Assembly: GCF_016722925.1 (NCBI RefSeq)
Contig: NZ_JAEQNC010000012.1
Location: 62,001-126,000 of the forward strand
Length of the DNA stretch: 64,000 bases
Origin: Phytoamicus setariae
Lineage (GTDB): Bacteria; Pseudomonadota; Alphaproteobacteria; Rhizobiales; Rhizobiaceae
Direction of reading: 5' to 3'
Both the position numbers and the translations under genes were made by a program. A model generated the notes under the pieces. It made no database searches, was not told where the DNA came from, and saw only the letters and a program-made list of their open reading frames with translations. Positions 1-62,432 of the stretch are shown piece after piece (the first letter of the stretch is position 1; every line of letters begins with the position of its first letter).

Positions 1-863
1 AGTTCGGCCAGATGTCGCTTGCGTTTCTTGGCGCGGGGATAGACCAGGCAATAGCTGTGGCCCAAGTCGATCGTGATGTCGGACAATGCCACCAGCCTTC
101 CGGCCGCCATATCGTCCAGAGCCATCATACGTTGACCAAGAGCAACGCCAATACCCTGACCGGCCAGATCCAGCGCAACACGCGAATTGCTGGCCTGAAA
201 CCCCTTGGTTGCCAAGTGCGGACTTAGCTTCGCTTTCACAAACCAGTCATGCCACGTCGGATGAGAAGCGAAACTCGGGCCCCAGCTTGTGTGCAACAAG
301 TCGTCACCTGGCACCATCGCCATGCCGTGGTCGCGCACTGCAGGATTGCGCTCCAGATATTCGGGGCTGCAAAGCGGAAGAACCACGTCATGCTCCAGCG
401 GGACAATGGCGTGCTCCGGATAATGAGTAGGATTGTAAGCGATCCGAAGGTCGATATTGTGCCGCGCAAAATCAACGGGATCCGGCTCGACCCTCAGGTC
501 GAACCGGAACTCCGGACACGAGCGGGAATAGCTGGTCAGCCGCGGAATGACCCATCTCTCCGCCACCGATTCGATTGCACTGACCACCAGTCGGGATCTG
601 GAGCGATCCAGAACGAGCTGTTCGGTAACCTCGGAAATCAGCTGCAAACCGACTGCAGCGCCGTCGAAAATGGCGTGTCCGGCATCTGTCAGGACAATGC
701 GGTTGTTTAGCCGCAGGAACATCTGTTTACCGAGGTAATCCTCCAGCTTGCGAATATGCTGGCTGATTGCCGCGGAGGAGACACCCATCTCTTCCGCGGC
801 CGCGACATAGCTGCCGGTCCGGGCGGCCGCTTCGAACGCCCGCAAGGCATTCAGGGGGGGCAA
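1..863 (-). CDS. LysR-family transcriptional regulator (GcvA-like), partial
   Basis: About 287 residues are readable on the minus strand and the frame runs off the left edge, so the C-terminus is missing. The N-terminus carries a typical LysR winged helix-turn-helix beginning LNALRAFEAAARTGSYVAAA, with the recognition segment SSAAISQHIRKLEDYLG. The rest matches the effector-binding domain of the GcvA/AmpR type. The start is uncertain. The frame has no ATG after an in-frame stop near 975, so the TTG at 863 is the closest plausible start. An ATG at 894 lies in another frame that would join this one across a run of seven C (854-860 on the plus strand). The gene is divergent from the oxygenase gene at 1221. 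By LysR convention it probably regulates that gene and the linked block. Confidence 0.88.
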   Translation of the reverse strand, partial: MPPLNALRAFEAAARTGSYVAAAEEMGVSSAAISQHIRKLEDYLGKQMFLRLNNRIVLTDAGHAIFDGAAVGLQLISEVTEQLVLDRSRSRLVVSAIESVAERWVIPRLTSYSRSCPEFRFDLRVEPDPVDFARHNIDLRIAYNPTHYPEHAIVPLEHDVVLPLCSPEYLERNPAVRDHGMAMVPGDDLLHTSWGPSFASHPTWHDWFVKAKLSPHLATKGFQASNSRVALDLAGQGIGVALGQRMMALDDMAAGRLVALSDITIDLGHSYCLVYPRAKKRKRHLAE

Positions 864-1129
864 AGTCAGGGGAATTGTCGTCGGCCCTCGGCATTCGGTT
901 GGATAGTGGTCAGGTTCTAGCCAGGCGCAGCGATTGCCAGGAGCCAAGGTGACCGCGAGATGGCAATCATATCAGCAAATCGCGCTCTGGCAATGCAACG
1001 ACGGTTGCGGCGGACATTGCACAGACACCGCGAGATACTTGGTCAGCCGGTGCGTTTACGCAGCGCACCGCATCTTTAACTGACTGGGTCGTACACGCGC
1101 AGCTGAAAGTAACCGCCCGACAGTGCATA

Positions 1130-1220: not shown

Positions 1221-2012
1221 ATGAAACATGTTATCGACCTCGAAACCTATCCACTGGACCGTCCCGAAAGCCTCGAATACGCGGCTCTTGTTGAGAGCTG
1301 CAAAGAGCGTCTTGCTGCCGACGGCATGTTTGAACTGCCCGGGTTCATGCGTGCCGAAGCGACCAGGGCCGCCGCCGATGCGGCAAAGCCCGCCATGGCG
1401 ACAGAGAGCTTTCGTCACGCCCGCCAGCACAACATCTATTTTCGCGACACCGTCGAGGGGTTGAGCGACGACCATCCTGCCATGGCCAAGGTCGAGACAG
1501 TGAACCATACGCTTTGCGCGGACCAATTGGCGGGAAATCCGGTTATCGATCTCTACGAGTGGCAACCCTTCGCCGACTTCCTCGCCGCCACGATGGGCAA
1601 GGATGTGCTTTATCATATGGAAGATCCGATGGCGCGGGTAAACGTCCAGGCGAGTCGCGACGGCGAGGCTTTGAACTGGCATTTCGACAGATCGGAGTTC
1701 ACCACGACGATCCTGCTTCAGGCGGCCGATGAAGGGGGTGAGCTGGAATACCGCAAGGACCTGCGCACGCCTGAAACACCAAACTTTGATGGTGTTGCCG
1801 CCGTGTTGCGCGGTGAGGACCCGGAAGTCAAAAAGGCGACGCTGAAGGCAGGCGCGCTGAATGTCTTCCGTGGCGTCAATACCCTGCACCGCGTTGTGCG
1901 GGTCAAGGGGCCGACTGAGCGCATGGTCGCAATTTTTGCTTTCTTCAACCATCCGGGCGTCGTCATGACGGCGAAGGAGCAGCTTGGTTTCTACGGCCGG
2001 TCTGTTGCCTGA
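1221..2012 (+). CDS. 2-oxoglutarate/Fe(II)-dependent oxygenase, small-molecule type
   Basis: 263 residues. The start ATG at 1221 is chosen because it follows an AGGAGG-like site (GGAGGATGTAGT). The double-stranded beta-helix iron site is readable: an HxD motif at His154-x-Asp156 (WHFDRSEF), a distal His near 223 (TLHRV), and an Arg near 234 that would bind the 2-oxoglutarate carboxylate. An HxD rather than HxG/A motif argues for hydroxylation rather than halogenation within this enzyme group. The expected reaction is O2- and 2-oxoglutarate-dependent hydroxylation or desaturation of a soluble metabolite, perhaps an amino-acid derivative. The substrate cannot be read from sequence. It is followed by the MIO-less lyase gene and shares an upstream motif with the transporter operon. 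Confidence 0.82.
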   Translation: MKHVIDLETYPLDRPESLEYAALVESCKERLAADGMFELPGFMRAEATRAAADAAKPAMATESFRHARQHNIYFRDTVEGLSDDHPAMAKVETVNHTLCADQLAGNPVIDLYEWQPFADFLAATMGKDVLYHMEDPMARVNVQASRDGEALNWHFDRSEFTTTILLQAADEGGELEYRKDLRTPETPNFDGVAAVLRGEDPEVKKATLKAGALNVFRGVNTLHRVVRVKGPTERMVAIFAFFNHPGVVMTAKEQLGFYGRSVA

Positions 2013-2429: not shown

Positions 2430-3929
2430 ATGGCTGAAGGCGTCGTATTGAATGATGCGCTGAACTGGCGCGACCTGTGTTTGGTGGCCGGGGGCGCTCG
2501 GCTGGTTCTGTCTGATGCCGCCCGCGGGCGGATCACCACATCGCAGCGCTTGGTAGAAGAAATTGTTGAACGCTCTATTCTTGGCTATGGGATCAACACC
2601 GGTGTCGGCGCGTTGTCCGACGTTATCGTCGATCGTTCTCAACAGGGTATGCTGTCGCACAATATCCTGCACAGCCATTGCGTGGGTGTCGGCAGCCCCC
2701 TCGGATCCCAGGAAACCCGCGCGATCATGGCAGCGCAAATTGCCAACTTCGCCCACGGCTATTCCGGTATCCGGCTGGAAACTGTCGAAGCCTTGCTGAC
2801 GCTGCTCAATGCCGGGATCGAGCCGGTCATCCCGTCACGCGGATCCGTTGGGTATCTGGCCCACGCCGCCGAGATCGGTCTTGTGTTGATCGGCGAAGGA
2901 CAGGCCCTTTGTCAGGGCAGGATCGTGTCGGGCGCCGAGGCTCTTGAGCGCGTCGGGCTGCGGCCGATGCAGCTTCGTGCTAAGGAGGGTTTGAGCCTGG
3001 TGAATGGTACGCCATGCGCCACCGGACTTGCGGCCTTGGCTCTCGCCCGACATGAGCGCCTGATGGATTGGAGCGATGCGGCAGCCGCAATGAGCTATGA
3101 AAACCTCGGCGGGCAAGTCGATGTGTTCGACGAGCAGGCTATGGCCTTGCGCTCGTCGCCAGGGGTCTCTGCCGTGGGTGCAAGCCTGCGGTTCTACCTC
3201 CACGGCAGCGCCATACTGGCGGCGTCGATGGGTCGGCGTACCCAGGACCCGCTCAGCCTGCGCGCCATTCCCCAGATCCATGGCGCGGCGCGGGATTTGT
3301 TCGAGCAGATCTGCGTCACCGTCGATCGGGAACTGCAAAGCGTGACCGACAATCCCGCAATCGTCGGTACGGCGGGTTCGCCGCGTGTGCTATCGCAGGC
3401 CCATGCTGTAGGTGCGGCGCTCGGTTTTGCCATGGACAATCTTGCGATTGCTACGGCAGAACTGGCCGAGATTTCGGAGCGGCGCATCGATCGGCTGGTA
3501 AATCCTCTCGTCAGTGGTTTGCCCGCCTTTCTTGCAGCCCGAACCGGCATAGCGTCAGGATTCATGATCGCGCAGTATACTGCGGTATCGCTTGTGTCCG
3601 AAAATCGACGGCTAGCCGCCCCGGCAAGCCTTGATGGGGGCGTAACCTCCGCGCTTCAGGAGGATATATTGACCCACGCGACACCCGCAGCTTTCAAGGC
3701 ATTGGCCGTTATCGACAATCTGGAGCTGATCCTCACCATCGAATTGCTAGCCGCAGCACAAGCTTATGATTGCCAGCCTGCCGCGTTGCATCGCGCGCCA
3801 GGCACAGATTCGTTGTATCGGGCCGTACGGGCCAGGGTCCCCACATACGCGGATGACAGGCCGCTTAATGCGGATTTCGCGCGGGTGCGACCGCTCTTGT
3901 CCGAACCGCTGCATCGTATTTCCGCATAA
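2430..3929 (+). CDS. Aromatic amino acid lyase (HAL/PAL) family protein lacking the MIO tripeptide
   Basis: 499 residues from the ATG at 2430, preceded by GAAAGAAGGA. The fold-defining motifs of histidine/phenylalanine ammonia-lyases are present: YGINTGVG (53-60, with the catalytic Tyr), NGT (192-194), QDPLSLR (272-278), TDNPA (306-310), SENRRL (390-395) and QED (410-412). The cofactor segment is changed: canonical GSVGASGDLAPLAH reads GSVGYLAHAAEIG (138-150), which is an exact loss of Ala-Ser-Gly. The protein therefore cannot form the MIO electrophile. As I recall, ergothionase, an MIO-independent trimethylamine lyase acting on ergothioneine, is a homolog of this family. By analogy this enzyme may eliminate a good leaving group such as trimethylamine from a betaine. 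The substrate is not known. Annotation as histidine ammonia-lyase would be misleading. Confidence 0.85.
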   Translation: MAEGVVLNDALNWRDLCLVAGGARLVLSDAARGRITTSQRLVEEIVERSILGYGINTGVGALSDVIVDRSQQGMLSHNILHSHCVGVGSPLGSQETRAIMAAQIANFAHGYSGIRLETVEALLTLLNAGIEPVIPSRGSVGYLAHAAEIGLVLIGEGQALCQGRIVSGAEALERVGLRPMQLRAKEGLSLVNGTPCATGLAALALARHERLMDWSDAAAAMSYENLGGQVDVFDEQAMALRSSPGVSAVGASLRFYLHGSAILAASMGRRTQDPLSLRAIPQIHGAARDLFEQICVTVDRELQSVTDNPAIVGTAGSPRVLSQAHAVGAALGFAMDNLAIATAELAEISERRIDRLVNPLVSGLPAFLAARTGIASGFMIAQYTAVSLVSENRRLAAPASLDGGVTSALQEDILTHATPAAFKALAVIDNLELILTIELLAAAQAYDCQPAALHRAPGTDSLYRAVRARVPTYADDRPLNADFARVRPLLSEPLHRISA

Positions 3930-4033: not shown

Positions 4034-4268
4034 GCGGCTGGGATGGAAATCCTGTTCGCCCCGGCCTTATCGATTGAGGCGATCGATTTACGCTAGGCGA
4101 ATAGGCCGAGCGGATGTAACTCGCCTTTGCGAGGCATATTCCCAGGCTGTTCTCTTCTGTCTTTACCACTGCTGGCCTTGATGAAAGTTAATGCGGATGT
4201 CCGTTGGACAAGATCTGCAATCCGAGAGCGTCAATAGATCAATATACACTCAAAAAGTGTTTGTGTTT

Positions 4269-4299
4269 AGTTTATCTTAGGCAAGCCAAATTTTTTGAG
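4269..4299 (+). promoter_or_regulatory. Putative LysR binding element, copy B
   Basis: This contains TCTTAGGCAAGC followed by AAATTTTTTG, nearly identical to the element at 1130-1158 in both order and spacing. It lies 100-130 bases upstream of the binding-protein start. Two such copies before two separate transcription units suggest one regulator, most simply the divergent LysR. Confidence 0.55.
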
Positions 4300-4398
4300 A
4301 GGTTGTCGCCCTGTAAACATCCGCTAACGTCCCCCTACATCCCCGCGTATCCGATTGGGCTGGAGGTCCAAACGCGGGGAGTACAAGGGAGGAACGTT

Positions 4399-6057
4399 AT
4401 GCCGGCAAAATTTAGCGCGCTGGATCTGCTGCGTCGCAGACTTACCGCGAATGAAAACCACCTCGTCGATGGGCTCCTTGCTGGGAGAGTGAGCCGCCGG
4501 GAATTTCTTCGTCACGGTTCGTTGCTGGGGCTTTCCGTGCCGATGATGGGGGGGATTTCGGCTGCGGTAGGTCTCTCAGTAGCGCCGCAACGCGCTTTTA
4601 GCCAGCCTGCCGGCGGGACAGTTCGCTACGGGCAGATCGTTCCAGGCGGAACAATGAACCCTCTTACCGTCGCAGATGCCGCTGGCGTTACGGTTATGTC
4701 GCAGTACGGTGAAACACTGGTCCTTTCGGACGCCGACCTGAAGATAAAGCCGTTGTTGGCCGAAAGCTGGAAACCCAATGACGATGGTACGGTCTGGACC
4801 TTCAAGCTTCGTCAGGGCGTAAAGTTCCACAATGGCGAGGCAATGACGGCAGATGACGTTGTCGCCACTTTCGATCGGCTCTGCGATCCGGCCAACGCAT
4901 CAAACGCACTTTCCGTGTTCGCTGGATTGCTGTCGAAGGGCGGCACGCGCAAGGTCGACGAACACACGGTGGAGTTTCATCTGGAACAGGCGAACGGCAA
5001 TTTCCCCTATGCTGTTTCAACCGACAACTACAATGCCATCATCGTCCCGGCTGCCATGCCGGCATCCGGCGATGAGACGATGATCGGCACCGGCCCCTTC
5101 AGGCTTGAGACCTATACGCCCAAAGTTGGCGCCAGCTTTGTACGCAATCCGGATTATTGGGGCGCGCCTGCGCTGCCGGACCGGGTAGAGGCAAACTTCT
5201 TCGACGACTACCAGCCGCAGATTTTCGCGCTTCAAGCCGGGCAGATAGATGTCATCCAGCAGTTGCCGGTACTGCTGTCAACGGGCCTGATAAACGATCC
5301 CAACGCCGCAATCCTCAACACCCCATCGTCGATTCACCACCAAGTCCACATGAAGGTCGACCGAGGGCTTTTCAAGGACAAACGTGTCCGCCGTGCTATC
5401 GCGCTCTGTATCGATCGGCCGACCCTGGTTAACGGACTTTTGCAGGGCCGCGGGCAAATCGGTAACGACAATCCGTTCATGCCCACCTACCCGTCAACCG
5501 GTCAAAACGTTCCTCAACGCCAAAAGAACATCGCAGAGGCCAAGCAGCTTATGGAAGCGGCTGGCATGTCGGCAGGTTTCGAGGCGACTCTGACCACCGA
5601 GAAATACCTGGAAATTCCGGAATATGCAGTCCTTATCCAGAATGCGGTCAAGGAGATCAACGGCAACATTTCGCTCAACATCATGGATCAGGGTGCCTAT
5701 TATGGCGACTCCGTTCCGAGCAAATCTCCCTGGCTCGATTGCGAGATGGGCATAACCGACTATGGACATCGGGGTGTGCCCAATGTCGTGCTGCAGGCTT
5801 CCCTGAGCAGCACCGGCACCTGGAATGCAGCCAGTTTCAAGAATGCGGAATACGACACTCTTGTCGCGGGCTATGTGCGCGCACTTGACCTTGAGGCACA
5901 GCGCGAGGCGTCCGGGAAGATTCAGTCCCTTCTGTTGGACGAGAGTCCGATCCTCTTCGGCTATTTTCAGGACATGCTGAGCGCCACCAGCAAAACTGTC
6001 AGCGGGGTGACCCTGACTGCAATGGGCCATCTGTTCCTGGCTCAAGCCAAGGTCTGA
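4399..6057 (+). CDS. ABC transporter substrate-binding protein, family 5 (peptide/opine/nickel type), Tat-exported
   Basis: 552 residues from the ATG at 4399, placed after GGGAGGAACGTT. The N-terminus has a twin-arginine signal (SRREFLRHG, residues 32-40) followed by a hydrophobic stretch and an AFSQ-type cleavage region, so the folded protein is probably exported by Tat. The mature part has the SBP_bac_5 hallmarks: LAESWKPNDDGTVWTFKLRQ and GVKFHNGEAMTADDVVATF. It captures a small ligand in the periplasm for the two permeases and ATPase downstream. Family 5 proteins bind peptides but also opines, betaine-like compounds and sugars, so the ligand is open. A 13-bp hairpin follows the stop codon, which fits higher expression of the binding protein than of the permeases. 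Confidence 0.92.
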   Translation: MPAKFSALDLLRRRLTANENHLVDGLLAGRVSRREFLRHGSLLGLSVPMMGGISAAVGLSVAPQRAFSQPAGGTVRYGQIVPGGTMNPLTVADAAGVTVMSQYGETLVLSDADLKIKPLLAESWKPNDDGTVWTFKLRQGVKFHNGEAMTADDVVATFDRLCDPANASNALSVFAGLLSKGGTRKVDEHTVEFHLEQANGNFPYAVSTDNYNAIIVPAAMPASGDETMIGTGPFRLETYTPKVGASFVRNPDYWGAPALPDRVEANFFDDYQPQIFALQAGQIDVIQQLPVLLSTGLINDPNAAILNTPSSIHHQVHMKVDRGLFKDKRVRRAIALCIDRPTLVNGLLQGRGQIGNDNPFMPTYPSTGQNVPQRQKNIAEAKQLMEAAGMSAGFEATLTTEKYLEIPEYAVLIQNAVKEINGNISLNIMDQGAYYGDSVPSKSPWLDCEMGITDYGHRGVPNVVLQASLSSTGTWNAASFKNAEYDTLVAGYVRALDLEAQREASGKIQSLLLDESPILFGYFQDMLSATSKTVSGVTLTAMGHLFLAQAKV

Positions 6058-6063
6058 TTGCTT

Positions 6064-6093
6064 CTGCACGCTCCGCTTGCGCGGAGCGTGCAG
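6064..6093 (+). promoter_or_regulatory. Intercistronic hairpin between binding protein and permease genes
   Basis: A perfect 13-bp stem, CTGCACGCTCCGC/GCGGAGCGTGCAG, with a four-base loop (TTGC) begins seven bases after the stop codon. In other ABC operons such hairpins protect the upstream binding-protein mRNA or attenuate read-through. That role is inferred here. Confidence 0.6.
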
Positions 6094-6114
6094 ATCAATC
6101 GCAAGCGACGTGAT

Positions 6115-7080
6115 ATGGAGGCGAACATAGTTAGCTATGTAATCAGAAGATTTGGCTTTGCCCTTGTGACGCTTTGGGTGCTTAGCCTTCTCGTTTTTGC
6201 CGGATCGCATATTCTGCCGGGGAATGTCGGCCGGGCAATGCTTGGCCCCTTTGCGGATCAGCGTGCCGTGGATGCACTCAATCATGAAATGGGAGCCGAC
6301 CGGCCGCTTGTCCGGCAATATGTCGACTGGATGGCAGGTTTCGTTACCGGGGATCTGGGCAAATCCTCCGCATACAGGATGCCTGTCGCGCAGTTCTTGA
6401 CGGGTGCGTTGGCCAACTCCGCCAAACTGGCATTCATGGGCTTCCTGATGGTTGTCCCGCTCAGTATCCTGGGCGGTGTGATTGCGGCCGTCTACCGCCG
6501 AAGCGCCATCGACAAGGCGATTTCGATCATTGGAATATCGGCGACGGTCGTGCCTGAGTTTATTTCAGCCATCCTCATGATCCTGGTTTTCGGCATCTGG
6601 CTGCAATGGTTTCCAATTTCGGCTGTCTGGCCAGCAGGCTCTGGTGTCGGCACGCAGCTCTACCATCTGTTCCTGCCTTCGATCCCGTTGGTGCTTGTGC
6701 TCTTTGGATACATTGCGCGGATGACGCGGGCGAGCATGATCGAGGCGCTCGATTCCGATTACACGCGCACGGCAATCCTGAAAGGACTGTCATATCCGTT
6801 GGTCATCTGGCGACACTGTCTGCGGAACGCGCTCGCGCCGACAATAAGCGTGATCGCCTCGCAGACGGTCTACCTGATTGGTGGCCTTGTCGTGATCGAA
6901 CTCATCTTCCGGTATCAGGGCATTGGTAGCCTGATCTATTTCGCAGCCAAGAAAAAGGATTTCCCCATGTTGCAGGCAGGCGTGATGTCCGTCGGCGCCA
7001 TCTTTGCGGTCGTCACGCTCATCGCTGATCTGATGTTTGCCGCCCTCAATCCCCGCATTCGTCTCGAGGGACGCTCATGA
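6115..7080 (+). CDS. ABC transporter permease, DppB type
   Basis: 321 residues. The ATG at 6115 is preferred over the in-frame TTG at 6058 because the family starts with a short N-terminus ending in YVIRRFGFALVTL, and because the 6058-6114 stretch contains the intercistronic hairpin. Six hydrophobic segments are visible, and the C-terminal half has the cytoplasmic EAA-like loop around TRASMIEALDSDYTRTAILKG, where the ATPase docks. It forms the inner-membrane channel with the product at 7077. The stop overlaps the next start (ATGA), indicating translational coupling. Confidence 0.93.
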   Translation: MEANIVSYVIRRFGFALVTLWVLSLLVFAGSHILPGNVGRAMLGPFADQRAVDALNHEMGADRPLVRQYVDWMAGFVTGDLGKSSAYRMPVAQFLTGALANSAKLAFMGFLMVVPLSILGGVIAAVYRRSAIDKAISIIGISATVVPEFISAILMILVFGIWLQWFPISAVWPAGSGVGTQLYHLFLPSIPLVLVLFGYIARMTRASMIEALDSDYTRTAILKGLSYPLVIWRHCLRNALAPTISVIASQTVYLIGGLVVIELIFRYQGIGSLIYFAAKKKDFPMLQAGVMSVGAIFAVVTLIADLMFAALNPRIRLEGRS

Positions 7081-11103: not shown

Positions 11104-11705
11104 TTACCCCCGCGTCAGATTTCGTCTGAACATCCGGCTTTTGGCATTGGATGGAGAGGGAGTGACCTTGCCCCAAGTTTTATCCAGTTTTGAGTTTGCT
11201 CCAGCGGTTTTGGGTTGCTGTATTTGGGGTGTAGCGGCGGGTTGCGGTGCGGAGCCATTTCGGCTGCGCGGCACCACATCGGGTCGCGGGTTGATGGTCT
11301 GAGCGAACTCGGCGGGTGTCAGCCAGCCGAGGCCGGAGTGCGGTCGGTGATCGTTGTAATCGCTGCGCCAGTTCGAAAGCGCCGATCGGGCATGGGTCAG
11401 TGACGAGAAGAGGGTTTCGTTCAAGAGTTCGTCTCGCAGCGGCCCGCTGAAGCTTTCGATGAAGGCGTTCTGGATCGGCTTGCCCGGTGCAATATAGTGC
11501 CAATCCACCTTGGCCCGGTCCGTCCATTGCAGAATCGCGTTGCTGGTGAACTCGCTGCCGTTGTCACTGACGATCATCTTGGGTTTGCCGCGCTCGTCGA
11601 TGATCCGATCCAGCTCACGGGCAACCCGCAGACCAGATAGCGATGTATCGGCGACGAGTGTCAGGCACTCCCTGGGGTGATCGAATTTTACGCCGTCGCT
11701 TTCCT
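11104..11705 (-). pseudogene. IS3-family transposase (OrfB) C-terminal remnant
   Basis: The minus-strand frame reads as the retroviral-integrase-like domain of an IS3 OrfB. It includes [20 protein letters not shown], then [15 protein letters not shown] with the second catalytic Asp, then [17 protein letters not shown] with the catalytic Glu. The N-terminal part of OrfB and the whole of OrfA are absent: similarity stops near 11700 and the first catalytic Asp region is degraded (FDHPRE instead of DDFTRE). The C-terminus runs past the usual end to 11104. It is a dead fragment separating the lyase/transporter block from the NUDIX unit. Confidence 0.85.
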
Positions 11706-57975: not shown

Positions 57976-58875
57976 TCAGGCCGCCTTGTTCATCAGCGAG
58001 AGCACCTCGGACACGGTCTCGCCGAACGACGATGGCGTTGGCACGATCGTTACGCCGGCATTCTTCAGAATCTCAACCTTTTCCTGTGCCGACTCGCCAA
58101 AGGCGGAGATGATCGCTCCGGCATGGCCCATGCGCCGGCCTTTGGGCGCCGAAAGACCGGCGATGTAGGCGATCAGCGGCTTCTTCATATGGTCGCGTGC
58201 CCAGAGCGCGGCTTCCGCCTCCTGCGGGCCACCGATTTCGCCGATCATCAGCACCGCATCGGTGCCCGGGTCCTGTTCGAAAAGTTCGAGCATGTCCTTG
58301 AAAGACGAACCGTTGATCGGATCGCCGCCAATGCCGACCGAGGTCGAGACGCCGATGCCGTATGATTTCATCTGGCTGGCGGCCTCATAGCCGAGGGTTC
58401 CCGACCGACCGACAATGCCGATCCGGCCCGGCAGGTAGATCGAGTCCGGCATGATGCCCATCAGAGCTTCGCCGGGCGTGATCATGCCCGCGCAGTTCGG
58501 GCCGATCAGGGTCATGCGCTCCTCGAAGCGATAGCGCCGCATGTAACGCTTGACCCTGATCATGTCCTGGGAGGGGATGCCGTCAGTGATGCACACGCAG
58601 AGGCGGATGCCGGCATCCGCCGCCTCCATGATCGAATCGGCCGCGAAGGGTGGCGGCACGAAGACAATCGACGCTTCGGCGCCGGTCTCCTGTACGGCAC
58701 CCTTGACGGTGTTGAACACCGGTAGTCCGAGATGGGTCCGGCCGCCTTTGCCTGGCGTCACACCGCCTACGACATTGGTGCCGTAGTGCCTCATCTCTTC
58801 GGCATGGAAGCTGCCGATCTTGCCGGTGAAACCCTGGACGATGATGCGCGTGTTCTTGTTGAGAAGAATGGACAT
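57976..58875 (-). CDS. mtkB: Malate-CoA ligase alpha subunit (malate thiokinase small subunit)
   Basis: 299 residues of the succinyl-CoA synthetase alpha family. CoA-binding N-terminus VQGFTGKIGSFHAEEM, GGVTPGKGG, IGPNCAGMITPGE and the phospho-His region GRRMGHAGAIIS. Placement with sgaA, mclA and mtkA identifies it as the small subunit of malate thiokinase rather than of the TCA-cycle enzyme. It joins malate and CoA to L-malyl-CoA using ATP. It follows mtkA by 12 bases. Confidence 0.9.
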   Translation of the reverse strand: MSILLNKNTRIIVQGFTGKIGSFHAEEMRHYGTNVVGGVTPGKGGRTHLGLPVFNTVKGAVQETGAEASIVFVPPPFAADSIMEAADAGIRLCVCITDGIPSQDMIRVKRYMRRYRFEERMTLIGPNCAGMITPGEALMGIMPDSIYLPGRIGIVGRSGTLGYEAASQMKSYGIGVSTSVGIGGDPINGSSFKDMLELFEQDPGTDAVLMIGEIGGPQEAEAALWARDHMKKPLIAYIAGLSAPKGRRMGHAGAIISAFGESAQEKVEILKNAGVTIVPTPSSFGETVSEVLSLMNKAA

Positions 58876-58887
58876 ATCGAAGGCTCC

Positions 58888-60072
58888 TCAGGCAGCTTGT
58901 TGTGTGGTGACCGAACGCCAGGCAGCGACGGCCTTGTCGGCAGCCTCGGCGAGTGTTTCGGCAATGATGATATCCTCGCCGGAATCGGCAAGGATGCGGC
59001 GGCCTTCCTCCATATTGGTGCCGGACAGCCGGACGACGAGCGGCACAGGCACGCCGACCTCGCGTAACGCCTTGATGATGCCCTCTGCCACCCAGTCGCA
59101 GCGATTGATGCCGGCGAAGATATTGACCAGGATCGTCTCGACGTTCTTGTCGCTCAACACGGCGCGGAAAGATTTCGCGACGCGTTCGGGCGAGGCCCCA
59201 CCGCCGATATCGAGAAAATTCGCCGGTTCACCGCCGGCGATCTTGATCATATCCATGGTCGCCATTGCCAACCCCGCACCGTTGATGATGCAGCCGATGC
59301 GGCCATCGAGCCCGACGTAGGAAAGGCCGCGATCGGATGCGAAGGTTTCACGCGGGTCTTCCTGGCTCTTGTCGCGCATTTCAGAAATATGCGGTCGGCG
59401 GAAGAGAGCGTTTTCGTCGAAGCTCATCTTGGCGTCGAGCGCCACGAGTCCGCCTTGACGGGTAACGGCCAGCGGATTGATCTCGAGCATCGAGGCGTCG
59501 TATTCGACGAAGGCGCGATAGCACCCAAGCAGCGTCTGGGTCGCTCGACCGATCAGCGCGTTATCGATACCGAGACCAAAGGCGATCTCGCGGGCCTGGA
59601 AATCCTGCATTCCGACGCCGGGATCGACCGTGGCGCGAATGATCGAGTCCGGCTCTGCCGCCGCGATCTCCTCGATCTCCATGCCGCCCGACGACGAGGC
59701 GACGATCATGATGCGTTCGGATTTGCGGTCGAGAACGAAGCCGAGATAAATCTCGCGCTCGATATCCATGGCTTCCTCAATATAGAGGCGGCTGACCAGT
59801 TTTCCCTGCGGCCCGGTCTGGTGGGTAATGAGCTTGCGGCCGAGCATACGCTCGGAGGCTTCGACGATCTGCTGGTCGGAGGTGCAAATCGCAATGCCGC
59901 CCGCCTTGCCCCGCGCGCCGGAATGGATCTGTGCCTTGACCACCCAGCGGTCGCCACCGATCTCGCTTGCGCGATAGGCCGCCTGTTCCGGGCTATAGGC
60001 AAGTCCGCCGCGCGGAATGTGGATCTGGTAGCGTGCGAGCAGTTCTTTGGTCTGGTATTCGTGTATGTCCAT
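58888..60072 (-). CDS. mtkA: Malate-CoA ligase beta subunit (malate thiokinase large subunit)
   Basis: 394 residues: an ATP-grasp protein starting [17 protein letters not shown], with [15 protein letters not shown] (nucleotide site), [20 protein letters not shown] and the C-terminal CoA-ligase part ([39 protein letters not shown]). Pairs with the alpha subunit to form malyl-CoA in the serine cycle. The residues and context favour malate thiokinase over succinyl-CoA synthetase. The gap to mclA is 17 bases. Confidence 0.9.
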
Positions 60073-60089
60073 GGTCGGGCTCCTGTCGT

Positions 60090-61034
60090 TCAGCGGCCGC
60101 CTGTGGCGATGGCGTCATGTGTTGCAAGCACGTTGCGTGCCATGCGTTCGGAAGCTGCGTCGATCATCTTACCGTCGAGCGAGGCGGCACCCCTGCCCTG
60201 GCTTTCCGCGACCTTCAGCGCGTCGATGATACGGCGGGCGCGATCGACTTCCTTCTCGGGCGGCGAGAAGATCTCGTTGGCGAGCGCGATCTGGCTCGGA
60301 TGGATGGCCCACTTGCCCTCGATGCCGAGTGCGGCGGCACGGCGGGCGGCAGCCCTGTAACCATCCGGATCGGAGAAGTCGCCAAACGGCCCGTCGATGG
60401 CGCGCAGGCCATAGGCGCGGCAGGCGACCGTCATGCGCGACAGGCCGAAATGCCATTGGTCGCCGGGATAGTCCGGGTTGAGCCCGCCGATATTGACGGT
60501 GCGCGCCTTGAGGCTCGCGGCATAGTCGGCGACGCCGAAATGCATGGCTTCCAGCCGGCCACCGAACGACGCGATGGCTTCAACATTGGCCATGCCGAGC
60601 GCGGTCTCGATCAGTGCCTCGAGGCCGACGTGGGTTTTGTAGCCCTTGGCGATCTCGATCTGGTTGACCATGGCCTCAACCATGTAGAGGTCGGCCGGCA
60701 CGCCGACCTTCGGCACCAAGAGCGTGTCGATCCGGTCACCGGCCTGTTCCATGAGGTCAACGACGTCGCGATACATGTAGTGGGTATCGAGACCGTTGAT
60801 GCGCACCGAAATCGTCTTGCCGCGGGCGCGCCAGTCGATCTGGTTCAGCGCAGCGACGATGTTGGCACGGGCACGCTCCTTGTCCGGCGGTGCTACGGCA
60901 TCCTCGATATCGAGAAAGATATAGTCAGCATCCGAATTGGCGGCTTTCTCGATCATGTCCGGGTTGGAGCCCGGAACGGCGAGTTCGCTGCGCTGCAGCC
61001 GGAGCCGGCGGAGATGGTTGATTGTATGGCTCAT
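60090..61034 (-). CDS. mclA: L-malyl-CoA/beta-methylmalyl-CoA lyase
   Basis: 314 residues of the HpcH/HpaI-CitE family. [40 protein letters not shown] with the metal Asp/Glu, [18 protein letters not shown]-type region, [15 protein letters not shown] and [17 protein letters not shown] match the malyl-CoA lyases of methylotrophs. It cleaves malyl-CoA to glyoxylate and acetyl-CoA. It lies between sgaA and mtkA in the operon, which links glyoxylate release to serine formation. Confidence 0.93.
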
Positions 61035-61057
61035 ATATTCCTCCCCATTCAGTCTTT

Positions 61058-62248
61058 TCAGGCGGCCCTGGCGGTCGTTGCGGTGGCGGCAGCGCGGAAC
61101 TGGTTGATCGCAGCCCCCACGCCCGAGCCCGCTTCGATCTTCACGCCGCAGTCAAGCAGCGTGAGCTCGGCGGCCCCGAGCGCGCCGAGAACCATCCCCT
61201 CGTTCAGCGAACCGAGATGGCCGATGCGGAACACCTTGCCGGCCACCTTGCTCAGCCCGCTGCCGAGCGAGGTATTGTAGGCGCGGTAGGCGTGCTGGAT
61301 GACTTCGACGCCATCGATACCCTCAGGCAGGCGGATCGCGGACACGGTGTCGGAGTGCCACTTCGGTTCGGTCGCGCAGAGTTTCAGGCCCCAGGCGGTG
61401 ACCGCCGCGCGGACGCCGTTCGCGAGATGATGGTGACGGGCGAAGATGTTCTCGAGTCCTTCCTCGAAGATCAGCTCCAGCGAGGCACGCAGGCCGCGCA
61501 GCAACTGCGTCGGCGGCGTATAGGGGAAATAGCCTATGTCGTTGGTCTTGATCATGTCCTCGAAAGAGAAGTAGCAACGAATGTGACGCCCGGTCTTGGA
61601 AGCCTCCAGCGCCTTCTGGCTCACCGAGAGGAAGCCCAGGCCCGCGGGAAGCATGAAGCCCTTCTGCGAACCGGAGACGGCGCAATCGACGCCCCATTCG
61701 TCCTGGCGGAAATCGATCGAGCCGATCGAGGAAACGCCATCGACGAAGAGCAGCGCCGGATGGCCGGCAGCATCGAGCGCCCGGCGAACGGCCGCCACGT
61801 CGGAGGTCACCCCCGTCGCCGTCTCGTTCTGCGTTACGAAGACAGCCTTGATCCGATGCGCCTTGTCGGCGGCCAGCTTTTCGGCATAAAGCTCCACCGG
61901 CACACCGGTGCCCCATTCCATGTCGAGGCAATCGACCTTAAATCCGAGGCGCTCGGCCATATCGACCCAGAGATGCGAGAACTGCCCGAAGCGGCTCATC
62001 AGCACGTTATCGCCGGGCGACAGCACGTTGGTCATCGCAGCTTCCCAGGCGCCTGTGCCGGACGACGGGTAGATGAAAACACGACCGGTCTCGTTCTTGA
62101 ATACCTTCTTCAGATCGGCAAAGAGCGGCAGGGTGAGTTCAGGAAAACGCGCCGAGCGCATATCCTCCATCGATAGGTTCATCGCCTGGCGAACCTCTTC
62201 AGGAATGTTGGTGGGGCCGGGAATGAAAAGATGGACGTAGCCTGACAT
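61058..62248 (-). CDS. sgaA: Serine-glyoxylate aminotransferase
   Basis: 396 residues from the ATG at 62248, after GGAGGAACC. The family start GYVHLFIPGPTNIPEEVRQA, FVTQNETATGVTSDV, VDGVSSIGSIDFRQDEWG and the PLP Lys in VSGSQKGFMLPAGL are clear, with RIGHLGSLNEGMVLGAL near the C-terminus. It transfers the amino group of serine to glyoxylate to give glycine and hydroxypyruvate. It is the first structural gene of the operon, directly downstream of the LuxR-type regulator. Confidence 0.93.
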   Translation of the reverse strand: MSGYVHLFIPGPTNIPEEVRQAMNLSMEDMRSARFPELTLPLFADLKKVFKNETGRVFIYPSSGTGAWEAAMTNVLSPGDNVLMSRFGQFSHLWVDMAERLGFKVDCLDMEWGTGVPVELYAEKLAADKAHRIKAVFVTQNETATGVTSDVAAVRRALDAAGHPALLFVDGVSSIGSIDFRQDEWGVDCAVSGSQKGFMLPAGLGFLSVSQKALEASKTGRHIRCYFSFEDMIKTNDIGYFPYTPPTQLLRGLRASLELIFEEGLENIFARHHHLANGVRAAVTAWGLKLCATEPKWHSDTVSAIRLPEGIDGVEVIQHAYRAYNTSLGSGLSKVAGKVFRIGHLGSLNEGMVLGALGAAELTLLDCGVKIEAGSGVGAAINQFRAAATATTARAA

Positions 62249-62432
62249 GGTTCCTCCGAATGCTTTGTCCGTTTCCGGACCTTTTCCTCGGAAGCCAAGC
62301 TGCCTTTCGGGCCATCTTCGCACAACACTCGATCAGGCAGAAAAGCGATGCCGGATGGGTAGGATCAAAAGGTCGCAGCGGGTGGGAAAAACTGGCGGCG
62401 GCTAGGATCGACCTACCCGAACGGGCGGCTCG

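What the first reader, a model, noticed from the sequence alone, without database searches (positions are those of the whole stretch)
2430..3929. HAL/PAL-family lyase with an exact deletion of the MIO-forming Ala-Ser-Gly
All the structural motifs of the family are present (YGINTGVG, NGT, QDPLSLR, TDNPA, QED), yet GSVG-ASG-DLAPLAHMS is GSVG-YLAHAAEIG, a clean three-residue loss with the next residue Asp changed to Tyr. Without MIO the enzyme cannot activate an ammonium leaving group in the usual way. From established knowledge, ergothionase is an MIO-independent homolog that eliminates trimethylamine from a betaine. This protein could be an ergothionase or a lyase for another quaternary amino acid (hercynine, tyrosine or tryptophan betaine). 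No thiourocanate hydratase is seen nearby, so a new pathway is possible.
Basis: partly seen in the sequence, partly recalled or inferred. Interest (0 to 1): 0.85.

Follow-up and report, generated by a model that had tools for sequence, protein, structure and literature searches.

The report
Probable hercynine-splitting relative of HutH
A bacterial enzyme related to the first enzyme of histidine breakdown has lost its built-in cofactor and most likely splits hercynine (trimethylated histidine) into urocanate and trimethylamine, but no activity has been measured.

Summary
Window 2430-3929 (+) encodes a 499-residue HAL/PAL-family protein whose MIO-forming Ala-Ser-Gly is cleanly missing (GSVG-Y-LAH). 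It is no sequencing error: the 80 relatives kept by the genome scan all share it. They form one clade apart from ergothionase types. The clade keeps the imidazole and catalytic residues of histidine lyase, but Tyr280 is Leu (as in ergothionase types), Phe329 is Ala or Pro, and ergothionase's Lys is absent. The window genome has a separate ergothioneine cluster with its own ergothionase-like gene. Of the 80 loci, 35 carry hut enzyme genes nearby and 39 more only a HutC-like regulator; the six HutU tested are ordinary urocanases. In one genome the hut cluster has this lyase and no ASG-bearing lyase was found. In the window genome's family the gene co-occurs with trimethylamine monooxygenase, and in one genome it sits beside a tmm-tdm-dmm cluster. 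Gene order suggests it is the 'hutH1' of Pseudomonas, not needed on histidine. Best explanation: MIO-free hercynine -> urocanate + trimethylamine (0.67). The substrate is inferred, not assayed. Ergothionase itself is not supported. The window copy stands outside the hut cluster, in another transport cassette.

The parts
1..947 (-). LysR/GcvA-type regulator, divergent from the cassette; its start lies 39 bases outside the window
   Evidence: L221:9961-10947; GcvA subfamily model 226 bits, below its cut-off 288; LysR-like genes lie beside the dioxygenase in L212, L217 and L180 as read by eye
1221..2012 (+). 2OG-Fe(II) oxygenase of the HalD Pfam family (reads HFD; hydroxylase-like by recall)
   Evidence: PF23169 42.8 bits, cut-off 26; 79% identical homologue in the P. 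humi lyase locus L024, in 1 of the 80 loci
2430..3929 (+). MIO-less HutH-family lyase, proposed hercynine trimethylamine-lyase
2841..2864 (+). GSVGYLAH: site of the Ala-Ser-Gly loss, Tyr142 at 2853-2855
3252..3254 (+). Leu275, in place of HAL Tyr280; shared with ergothionase types
3405..3407 (+). Ala326, in place of HAL Phe329
3576..3578 (+). Tyr383, where the ergothionase types have Lys
3660..3662 (+). Glu411, equivalent of imidazole-binding HAL Glu414 (role recalled)
4204..6057 (+). family 5 solute-binding protein of an ABC importer
   Evidence: PF00496 253 bits; 68% identical to the binding protein in the WSM1497 cluster; not found in the 80 relatives' loci
6058..7080 (+). ABC permease (Dpp/Opp B type)
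   Evidence: PF00528
7077..7958 (+). ABC permease (Dpp/Opp C type)
   Evidence: PF00528 and PF12911
7936..9981 (+). fused double ATPase of the ABC importer
   Evidence: PF00005 two stretches, PF08352
9899..11014 (+). nucleoside hydrolase-family protein; membership of the cassette unsure
   Evidence: PF01156 298 bits; found in 0 of 80 loci and 0 of 12 dioxygenase or lyase loci

Best explanation
The protein is a MIO-free trimethylamine-lyase of the HutH superfamily. It binds hercynine (N-alpha-trimethyl-histidine) by its imidazole (His83, Glu411), takes the beta-proton with Tyr53, and expels trimethylamine, which is already a good leaving group and needs no MIO adduct; the product is urocanate. 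Loss of MIO, Tyr280->Leu and Phe329->Ala make room for the bulky N(CH3)3 group. Urocanate enters the ordinary hut pathway; trimethylamine can enter Tmm-Tdm-Dmm. Shown: the deletion, its conservation, the clade, the residues, the gene neighbourhoods, the co-occurrence. Inferred: the substrate, the mechanism, the role of the pocket changes.
For: Deletion and Tyr in 80 of 80 kept relatives. Tyr53, His83, Asn195, Gln277, Arg283, Met382 and Glu414 in 100 of 100 clade rows, a HAL-type pocket; Leu at 280 in 100 of 100 and in 4 of 4 ergothionase types, Tyr in 44 of 45 MIO rows, the 45th being a PDB Y280F mutant. hutF, hutU, hutI or hutG in 35 of 80 loci, U+I+G together in 18, a HutC-like regulator alone in 39, ergothionase-like genes in 0. 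Six of six HutU scanned are urocanate hydratases (914-997 bits, cut-off 375), under both thiourocanate cut-offs. L024 (Pseudogemmobacter humi): hutC-F-W-V-lyase-I-G-U, and the genome shows only two PF00221 genes, neither with ASG. Betaine-type importer genes in 20 of 80 loci (the permease and binding protein scanned match choline/betaine models below cut-off). In 247 genomes of the window's family Tmm is in 19 of 41 with the gene and 27 of 206 without, p 5.6e-6; by genus 9 of 20 and 12 of 89, p 0.003. L225 carries dmm-tmm-tdm and lyase-ABC-hutC within 16 kb. The window genome has Tmm, TMAO demethylase and a DmmA-family gene and a hut cluster.
Against: No activity or ligand data. The window copy is not in the hut cluster, which is on contig C33. 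45 of 80 loci show no hut enzyme gene and 56 of 80 no hutU in up to 10 kb each side; in 39 the only link is a GntR regulator at 35% identity or more to HutC. 44 of 80 have an octopine/basic-amino-acid-type importer. In 19 of 20 genomes searched whole, another HutH-scoring gene (346-394 bits) exists, so 'no other HutH' rests on one genome. 22 of 41 genomes with the gene lack Tmm. HutXWV is reported to take part in histidine uptake in P. fluorescens. The Fisher tests ignore kinship; the genus test answers that only in part.
Confidence: 0.67

Rival explanations
1. It is an ergothionase: ergothioneine -> thiourocanate + trimethylamine.
For: Both lack MIO and carry Leu at the Tyr280 place; same fold, TM 0.90 to 6s7j; an AU test does not reject all MIO-less rows of the tree as one clade (p 0.15 and 0.35). 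In L123, outside the 80 loci, both gene types share one cluster.
Against: Different clade, ergothionase Lys absent in 100 of 100, PDB HALs score above 6s7j (293 against 188 bits), six HutU partners are urocanases, and the genome has a separate Ert cluster with an ergothionase-like gene.
Confidence: 0.08
2. It is a lyase for another imidazole betaine, such as ergothioneine sulfonate or S-methyl-ergothioneine, or for dimethyl-histidine.
For: Imidazole pocket kept. A bacterial ergothioneine sulfonate pathway is cited in PMC13405746, in connection with Agrobacterium radiobacter (passages; that paper is not held).
Against: The six HutU scanned are ordinary urocanases and stay under the S-methyl-thiourocanate cut-off; HutI and HutG homologues are present in 23 and 19 of 80 loci.
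Confidence: 0.1
3. It is a lyase for a different aromatic betaine (tryptophan, tyrosine or phenylalanine betaine), at least in the window copy, whose cassette is not in a hut cluster.
For: The window oxygenase and binding protein have relatives in a WSM1497 cluster with an MttB-like and a Rieske gene, for an unnamed N-methyl compound.
Against: His83, Met382 and Glu414 kept; 11 MIO rows of another type have Lys at 382 and 11 have Gln at 414. The P. humi locus has both the oxygenase and a hut cluster.
Confidence: 0.08
4. It is a catalytically dead HutH copy that helps or regulates the active HutH.
For: An ASG-bearing HutH lies in 13 of 80 loci; hutH1 is not needed on histidine in P. fluorescens.
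Against: Catalytic and imidazole residues invariant in 100 of 100; importer genes beside it in many loci; present with a hut cluster in a genome where no ASG lyase was found.
Confidence: 0.05
5. It is an ordinary histidine ammonia-lyase that works without MIO.
For: In P. humi it is the only HutH-like gene of the hut cluster.
Against: No MIO, no Tyr280, hutH models under their cut-offs (474.6 of 524, 463.7 of 539); the P. fluorescens hutH1, which I equate with this family by gene order only, is not needed on histidine.
Confidence: 0.02

Closest known systems
HutH1 of the Pseudomonas hut operon (hutTu-hutXWV-hutH1 module, PMC8871633, passage)
   Same: Order hutU, hutX, hutW, hutV, MIO-less gene, ASG HutH, hutI, hutG in L122 fits the described module; GSVGY---LTH; same clade
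   Different: Second tier of scores, 580-644 bits against 740-867 for full-length window-type genes; Pro at the Phe329 place in 9 rows.
Ergothionase, T. denticola (PDB 6s7j)
   Same: PF00221 fold, no MIO, Leu at the Tyr280 place; works like it in the proposed elimination of trimethylamine
   Different: SSIGEG-D (one residue short) instead of GSVGY (three short); Lys after Gln against Tyr383; separate clade
Histidine ammonia-lyase, P. putida HutH (PDB 1b8f)
   Same: Closest solved fold, TM 0.92, 35% identity; imidazole pocket and Tyr53
   Different: No MIO, no Tyr280, no Phe329
Ert ergothioneine utilisation cluster (NCBIfam thiourocanate hydratase, ErtD, ErtE)
   Same: Also begins with a trimethylamine-lyase step (by recall)
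   Different: In this genome it is a separate locus (C18) with its own ergothionase-like gene

Membership tests
MIO-dependent histidine ammonia-lyase (HutH) | Ala-Ser-Gly triad forming MIO | tested here: not met
   GSVGYLAH
MIO-dependent histidine ammonia-lyase (HutH) | Curated hutH models above cut-off | tested here: not met
   474.6 of 524 and 463.7 of 539.15 bits
MIO-dependent histidine ammonia-lyase (HutH) | Imidazole-binding His83 and Glu414 and base Tyr53 | tested here: met
   100 of 100 clade rows; residue roles recalled
MIO-dependent histidine ammonia-lyase (HutH) | Deaminates histidine | not testable with these tools
   needs an assay
Ergothionase | PF00221 fold without MIO | tested here: met
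Ergothionase | Lys that stabilises the thiolate (Lys384; number and role recalled; position 383 by my count of 6s7j) | tested here: not met
   Tyr in 100 of 100, Lys in 4 of 4 ergothionase types
Ergothionase | Falls in the ergothionase clade | tested here: not met
   quick tree of 54 rows, SH-aLRT 100 for the HutH1-like branch and 98 for the ergothionase types; but joining the MIO-less rows is not rejected
Ergothionase | Linked thiourocanate hydratase | tested here: not met
   six HutU partners of relatives are urocanases; in this genome the hydratase found is on another contig
Proposed hercynine trimethylamine-lyase (HutH1-like) | GS[VA]GY deletion plus Leu at 280 in one clade | tested here: met
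   but a further GSVGY protein with Leu at 280 outside this clade's scores was met once (L201)
Proposed hercynine trimethylamine-lyase (HutH1-like) | Link to hut enzyme genes | tested here: inconclusive
   35 of 80 relatives, 39 more with a HutC-like regulator only; not the window copy itself
Proposed hercynine trimethylamine-lyase (HutH1-like) | Releases trimethylamine and urocanate from hercynine | not testable with these tools
   needs an assay

The most novel reading that the evidence does not exclude
A widespread, unnamed enzyme class in rhizobia, Burkholderia relatives and (by gene order) Pseudomonas splits hercynine into urocanate and trimethylamine. It explains the dispensable second HutH of hut operons, links the hut and trimethylamine pathways, and is a trimethylamine source not counted so far. 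MIO loss with Tyr280->Leu may have arisen separately in ergothionases and here.
Probability: 0.58. Interest if true: 0.75.

Novelty: new variant of a known kind. Interest (0 to 1): 0.62.

Why it matters
Where the plasmid records that I saw name the gene, they call it histidine ammonia-lyase, which is probably wrong. A hercynine lyase would give a function to hutH1 and its importer, a route for soil and plant bacteria to use a betaine made by fungi and other microbes, and a simple test case of how a cofactor is lost when the leaving group no longer needs it.

Tried and rejected
Ergothionase: rejected for this gene (above). Sequencing error or pseudogene: rejected, because the deletion is shared by 80 of 80 kept relatives and the frame is open. 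Aromatic amino acid lyase: weakened by Met382/Glu414. Search for a published hercynine lyase: full-text searches of the held CC-licensed library. I saw none in the listings, but several lists were capped (25 of 622, 40 of 156, 25 of 130, 15 of 24). No held paper has 'hercynine', 'urocanate' and 'trimethylamine' together. Most subscription papers and preprints are not held, so prior discovery is not excluded. Papers: PMC7653990, PMC13405746, PMC8871633, PMC12977541, PMC8069873 and PMC12772324 were seen as passages; all others only as search listings with the start of the abstract. Maurer 2019, Yan 2022 and two papers recalled by DOI were not held. Whether Tyr142 fills the MIO pocket could not be judged: I had no coordinates, the active site needs a tetramer, and residues 401-410 are modelled poorly. 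The role of the 2OG-Fe(II) oxygenase stayed open. On rechecking I corrected the hut count from 'any hut gene, 74 of 80' to 35 with enzyme genes and 39 with the regulator only, withdrew a claim that scores of 414 bits and below are all MIO lyases, and lowered the main odds from 0.70 to 0.67.

Full report
OBSERVATION. The gene is at 2430-3929 (+), 499 aa, with PF00221 at 494 bits. At the MIO site it reads GSVGYLAH where HAL reads GSVGASGDLAP. Eight NCBIfam models match and none reaches its cut-off.

CONSERVATION. All 80 have the same three-residue loss and the Tyr (recounted). Three other open frames picked up by a loose motif had no phmmer match and were dropped. Over 398 genomes of the window's phylum (read as Pseudomonadota from named loci), 168 had matches to the family profile. 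The listed scores fall in tiers: 766-859 bits (9 genes, window type) and 580-644 bits (14 genes, of which I read 9; all 9 are GSVGY types and 6 of the 9 have an ASG HutH in the stretch fetched). One gene at 418 bits is a third MIO-less type. Two genes read at 414 and 394 bits (L128, L129) bear ASG, but another at 394 bits (L201, from the Acidisoma genome) reads GSVGYLIATAH with QDPLSLR, so scores below 414 are not all MIO lyases; most of them were not read.

RESIDUES. On an alignment of 165 rows (150 unique) I compared 100 clade rows, 45 MIO rows, 4 ergothionase types and 1 third-type row. Tyr53, His83, Asn195, Gln277, Arg283, Met382 and Glu414 (P. putida HAL numbers) are the same in 100 of 100 clade rows. 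Position 280 is Leu in 100 of 100 clade rows and 4 of 4 ergothionase types; it is Tyr in 44 of 45 MIO rows, the other being a PDB mutant. Position 329 is Ala in 91 and Pro in 9 clade rows, Phe in all other rows. The residue after Gln385 is Tyr in the clade and Lys in 4 of 4 ergothionase types. Roles of these residues are recalled from HAL and ergothionase work, not tested. L201 is not in this count.

TREE. With 54 chosen rows of the 150 in a quick search, the HutH1-like rows are one side of a branch (SH-aLRT 100) and the ergothionase types another (98); 6s7j and three other rows have long branches. Holding the MIO-less rows together is not rejected (p 0.15 and 0.35), so two losses of MIO are favoured but not proven.

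FOLD. The model has mean pLDDT 88.2. Best PDB match is P. putida HAL (TM 0.92); ergothionase 6s7j is rank 15 (TM 0.90). By sequence HALs score above ergothionase too (293 against 188 bits).

NEIGHBOURHOODS. By tblastn (over 60% coverage, mostly at least 35% identity; 8 loci are cut short by contig ends) hutC-like genes are in 63 of 80 loci, hutF 35, hutD 25, hutU 24, hutI 23, hutG 19. At least one of F, U, I, G is in 35 of 80; U, I and G together in 18; hutC alone in 39; nothing in 6. Betaine-type importer genes are in 20, octopine/basic amino acid-type in 44, an ASG HutH in 13, an ergothionase-like gene in 0. Annotated cases: S. meliloti pSymB hutC-hutF-betaine ABC-lyase, R. etli with hutHa1 and hutHa2, B. 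pyrrocinia ABC-lyase-hutC, Aureimonas AU20 hutF-lyase-hutI-hutG-hutU; R. daejeonense has no hut gene near. HutU from six loci are urocanate hydratases. Of 20 genomes searched whole, 19 hold a further HutH-scoring gene; I read 10 of those loci, 9 with ASG and L201 without. The twentieth, P. humi, shows two PF00221 genes only: the lyase, and a distant one reading GSVGCG-D; its completeness was not given. [quoted passage not shown]

TRIMETHYLAMINE. The window genome holds trimethylamine monooxygenase (849 bits, cut-off 675), TMAO demethylase (1259, cut-off 1100) and a DmmA-family gene (113, cut-off 60) on contig C3. In 247 genomes of the window's family (read as Rhizobiaceae, since Sinorhizobium glycinis falls in it by matching coordinates) the lyase is in 41, Tmm in 46, both in 19 (p 5.6e-6; genera 9 of 20 against 12 of 89, p 0.003). 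In 4 of the 19, from two genera, both lie within 30 kb on one contig, read from the listings; in G514 they are 6.6 kb apart with tdm between.

THE WINDOW LOCUS. It differs from the usual setting: a LysR gene, a 2OG-Fe(II) oxygenase, the lyase, and a family 5 ABC importer, away from the hut cluster on C33. Three of 8 other genomes of the genus carry a copy of only 56% identity, and in the two whose surroundings I read it lies by hut genes, so the window copy probably came by transfer (inference). The oxygenase is 79% identical to one in the P. humi lyase locus next to a ProX-like binding protein (86 bits, below the cut-off of 215). Its 52-57% relatives: in WSM1497 beside an MttB-like gene (286 bits, cut-off 525), a Rieske gene (GbcA model 157 bits, cut-off 670) and a family 5 binding protein; in G051, G055 and G071 near a family 5 importer, in the first two with two enolase-like genes as read by eye; in G578 beside FAD-dehydrogenase-like genes, by eye; in G409 and UR115 no such set was seen, and G511 was not read. 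This leans to a quaternary-amine substrate but does not name it.

ERGOTHIONEINE. Contig C18 holds thiourocanate hydratase (1024 bits, cut-off 930), ErtD (766, 600), ErtE (591, 520) and an ergothionase-like gene whose best PDB match is 6s7j. So this genome already has that pathway elsewhere.

VERDICT. Hercynine trimethylamine-lyase at 0.67. The reaction is inferred from residues and neighbours; an assay decides. The searches named in Tried and rejected found no description, within their limits.

Noticed in passing
L126:6458-8032 (same gene as L110): A third MIO-less type: GSVGY---LGPEGH, but Tyr280 and Phe329 kept and hutH models near cut-off (538 of 524 and 533 of 539). Substrate unknown; one case only.
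   Followed up: partly
   Followed up: no
L139:1274-8658 (G000 contig C18): Ergothioneine cluster: ergothionase-like gene, ErtD, ErtE, thiourocanate hydratase, beside a Dpp-type importer.
   Followed up: yes
window 1221-2012; L179:6323-12718; L212; L217; L214: A 2OG-Fe(II) oxygenase recurs with MttB-like and Rieske genes, or with enolase-like or FAD-dehydrogenase-like genes (by eye), and often a shared family 5 binding protein: perhaps an undescribed N-methyl-compound module.
   Followed up: partly
L123:4513-10121: One cluster holds both an ergothionase-like gene and the MIO-less HutH1-like gene, with hutU, hutI, hutG and hutF.
   Followed up: no
L211:1499-3124 (P. humi genome): A distant PF00221 protein reading GSVGCG-D, so also without ASG.
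   Followed up: no
L014:8058-15755 and L086: In Ciceribacter and R. daejeonense the lyase lies between a desaturase-like gene and cytochrome c / molybdopterin dehydrogenase genes, with no hut genes near.
   Followed up: no
window 57976-62323 (-): Malate-CoA ligase beta (716 bits, cut-off 604), CitE-like lyase and BhcA-like aminotransferase (590 bits, cut-off 650): a possible C1 or glyoxylate assimilation set.
   Followed up: partly
window 11104-11577 (-): Transposase-like fragment (IS3-type by recall) just downstream of the cassette, in line with transfer.
   Followed up: no
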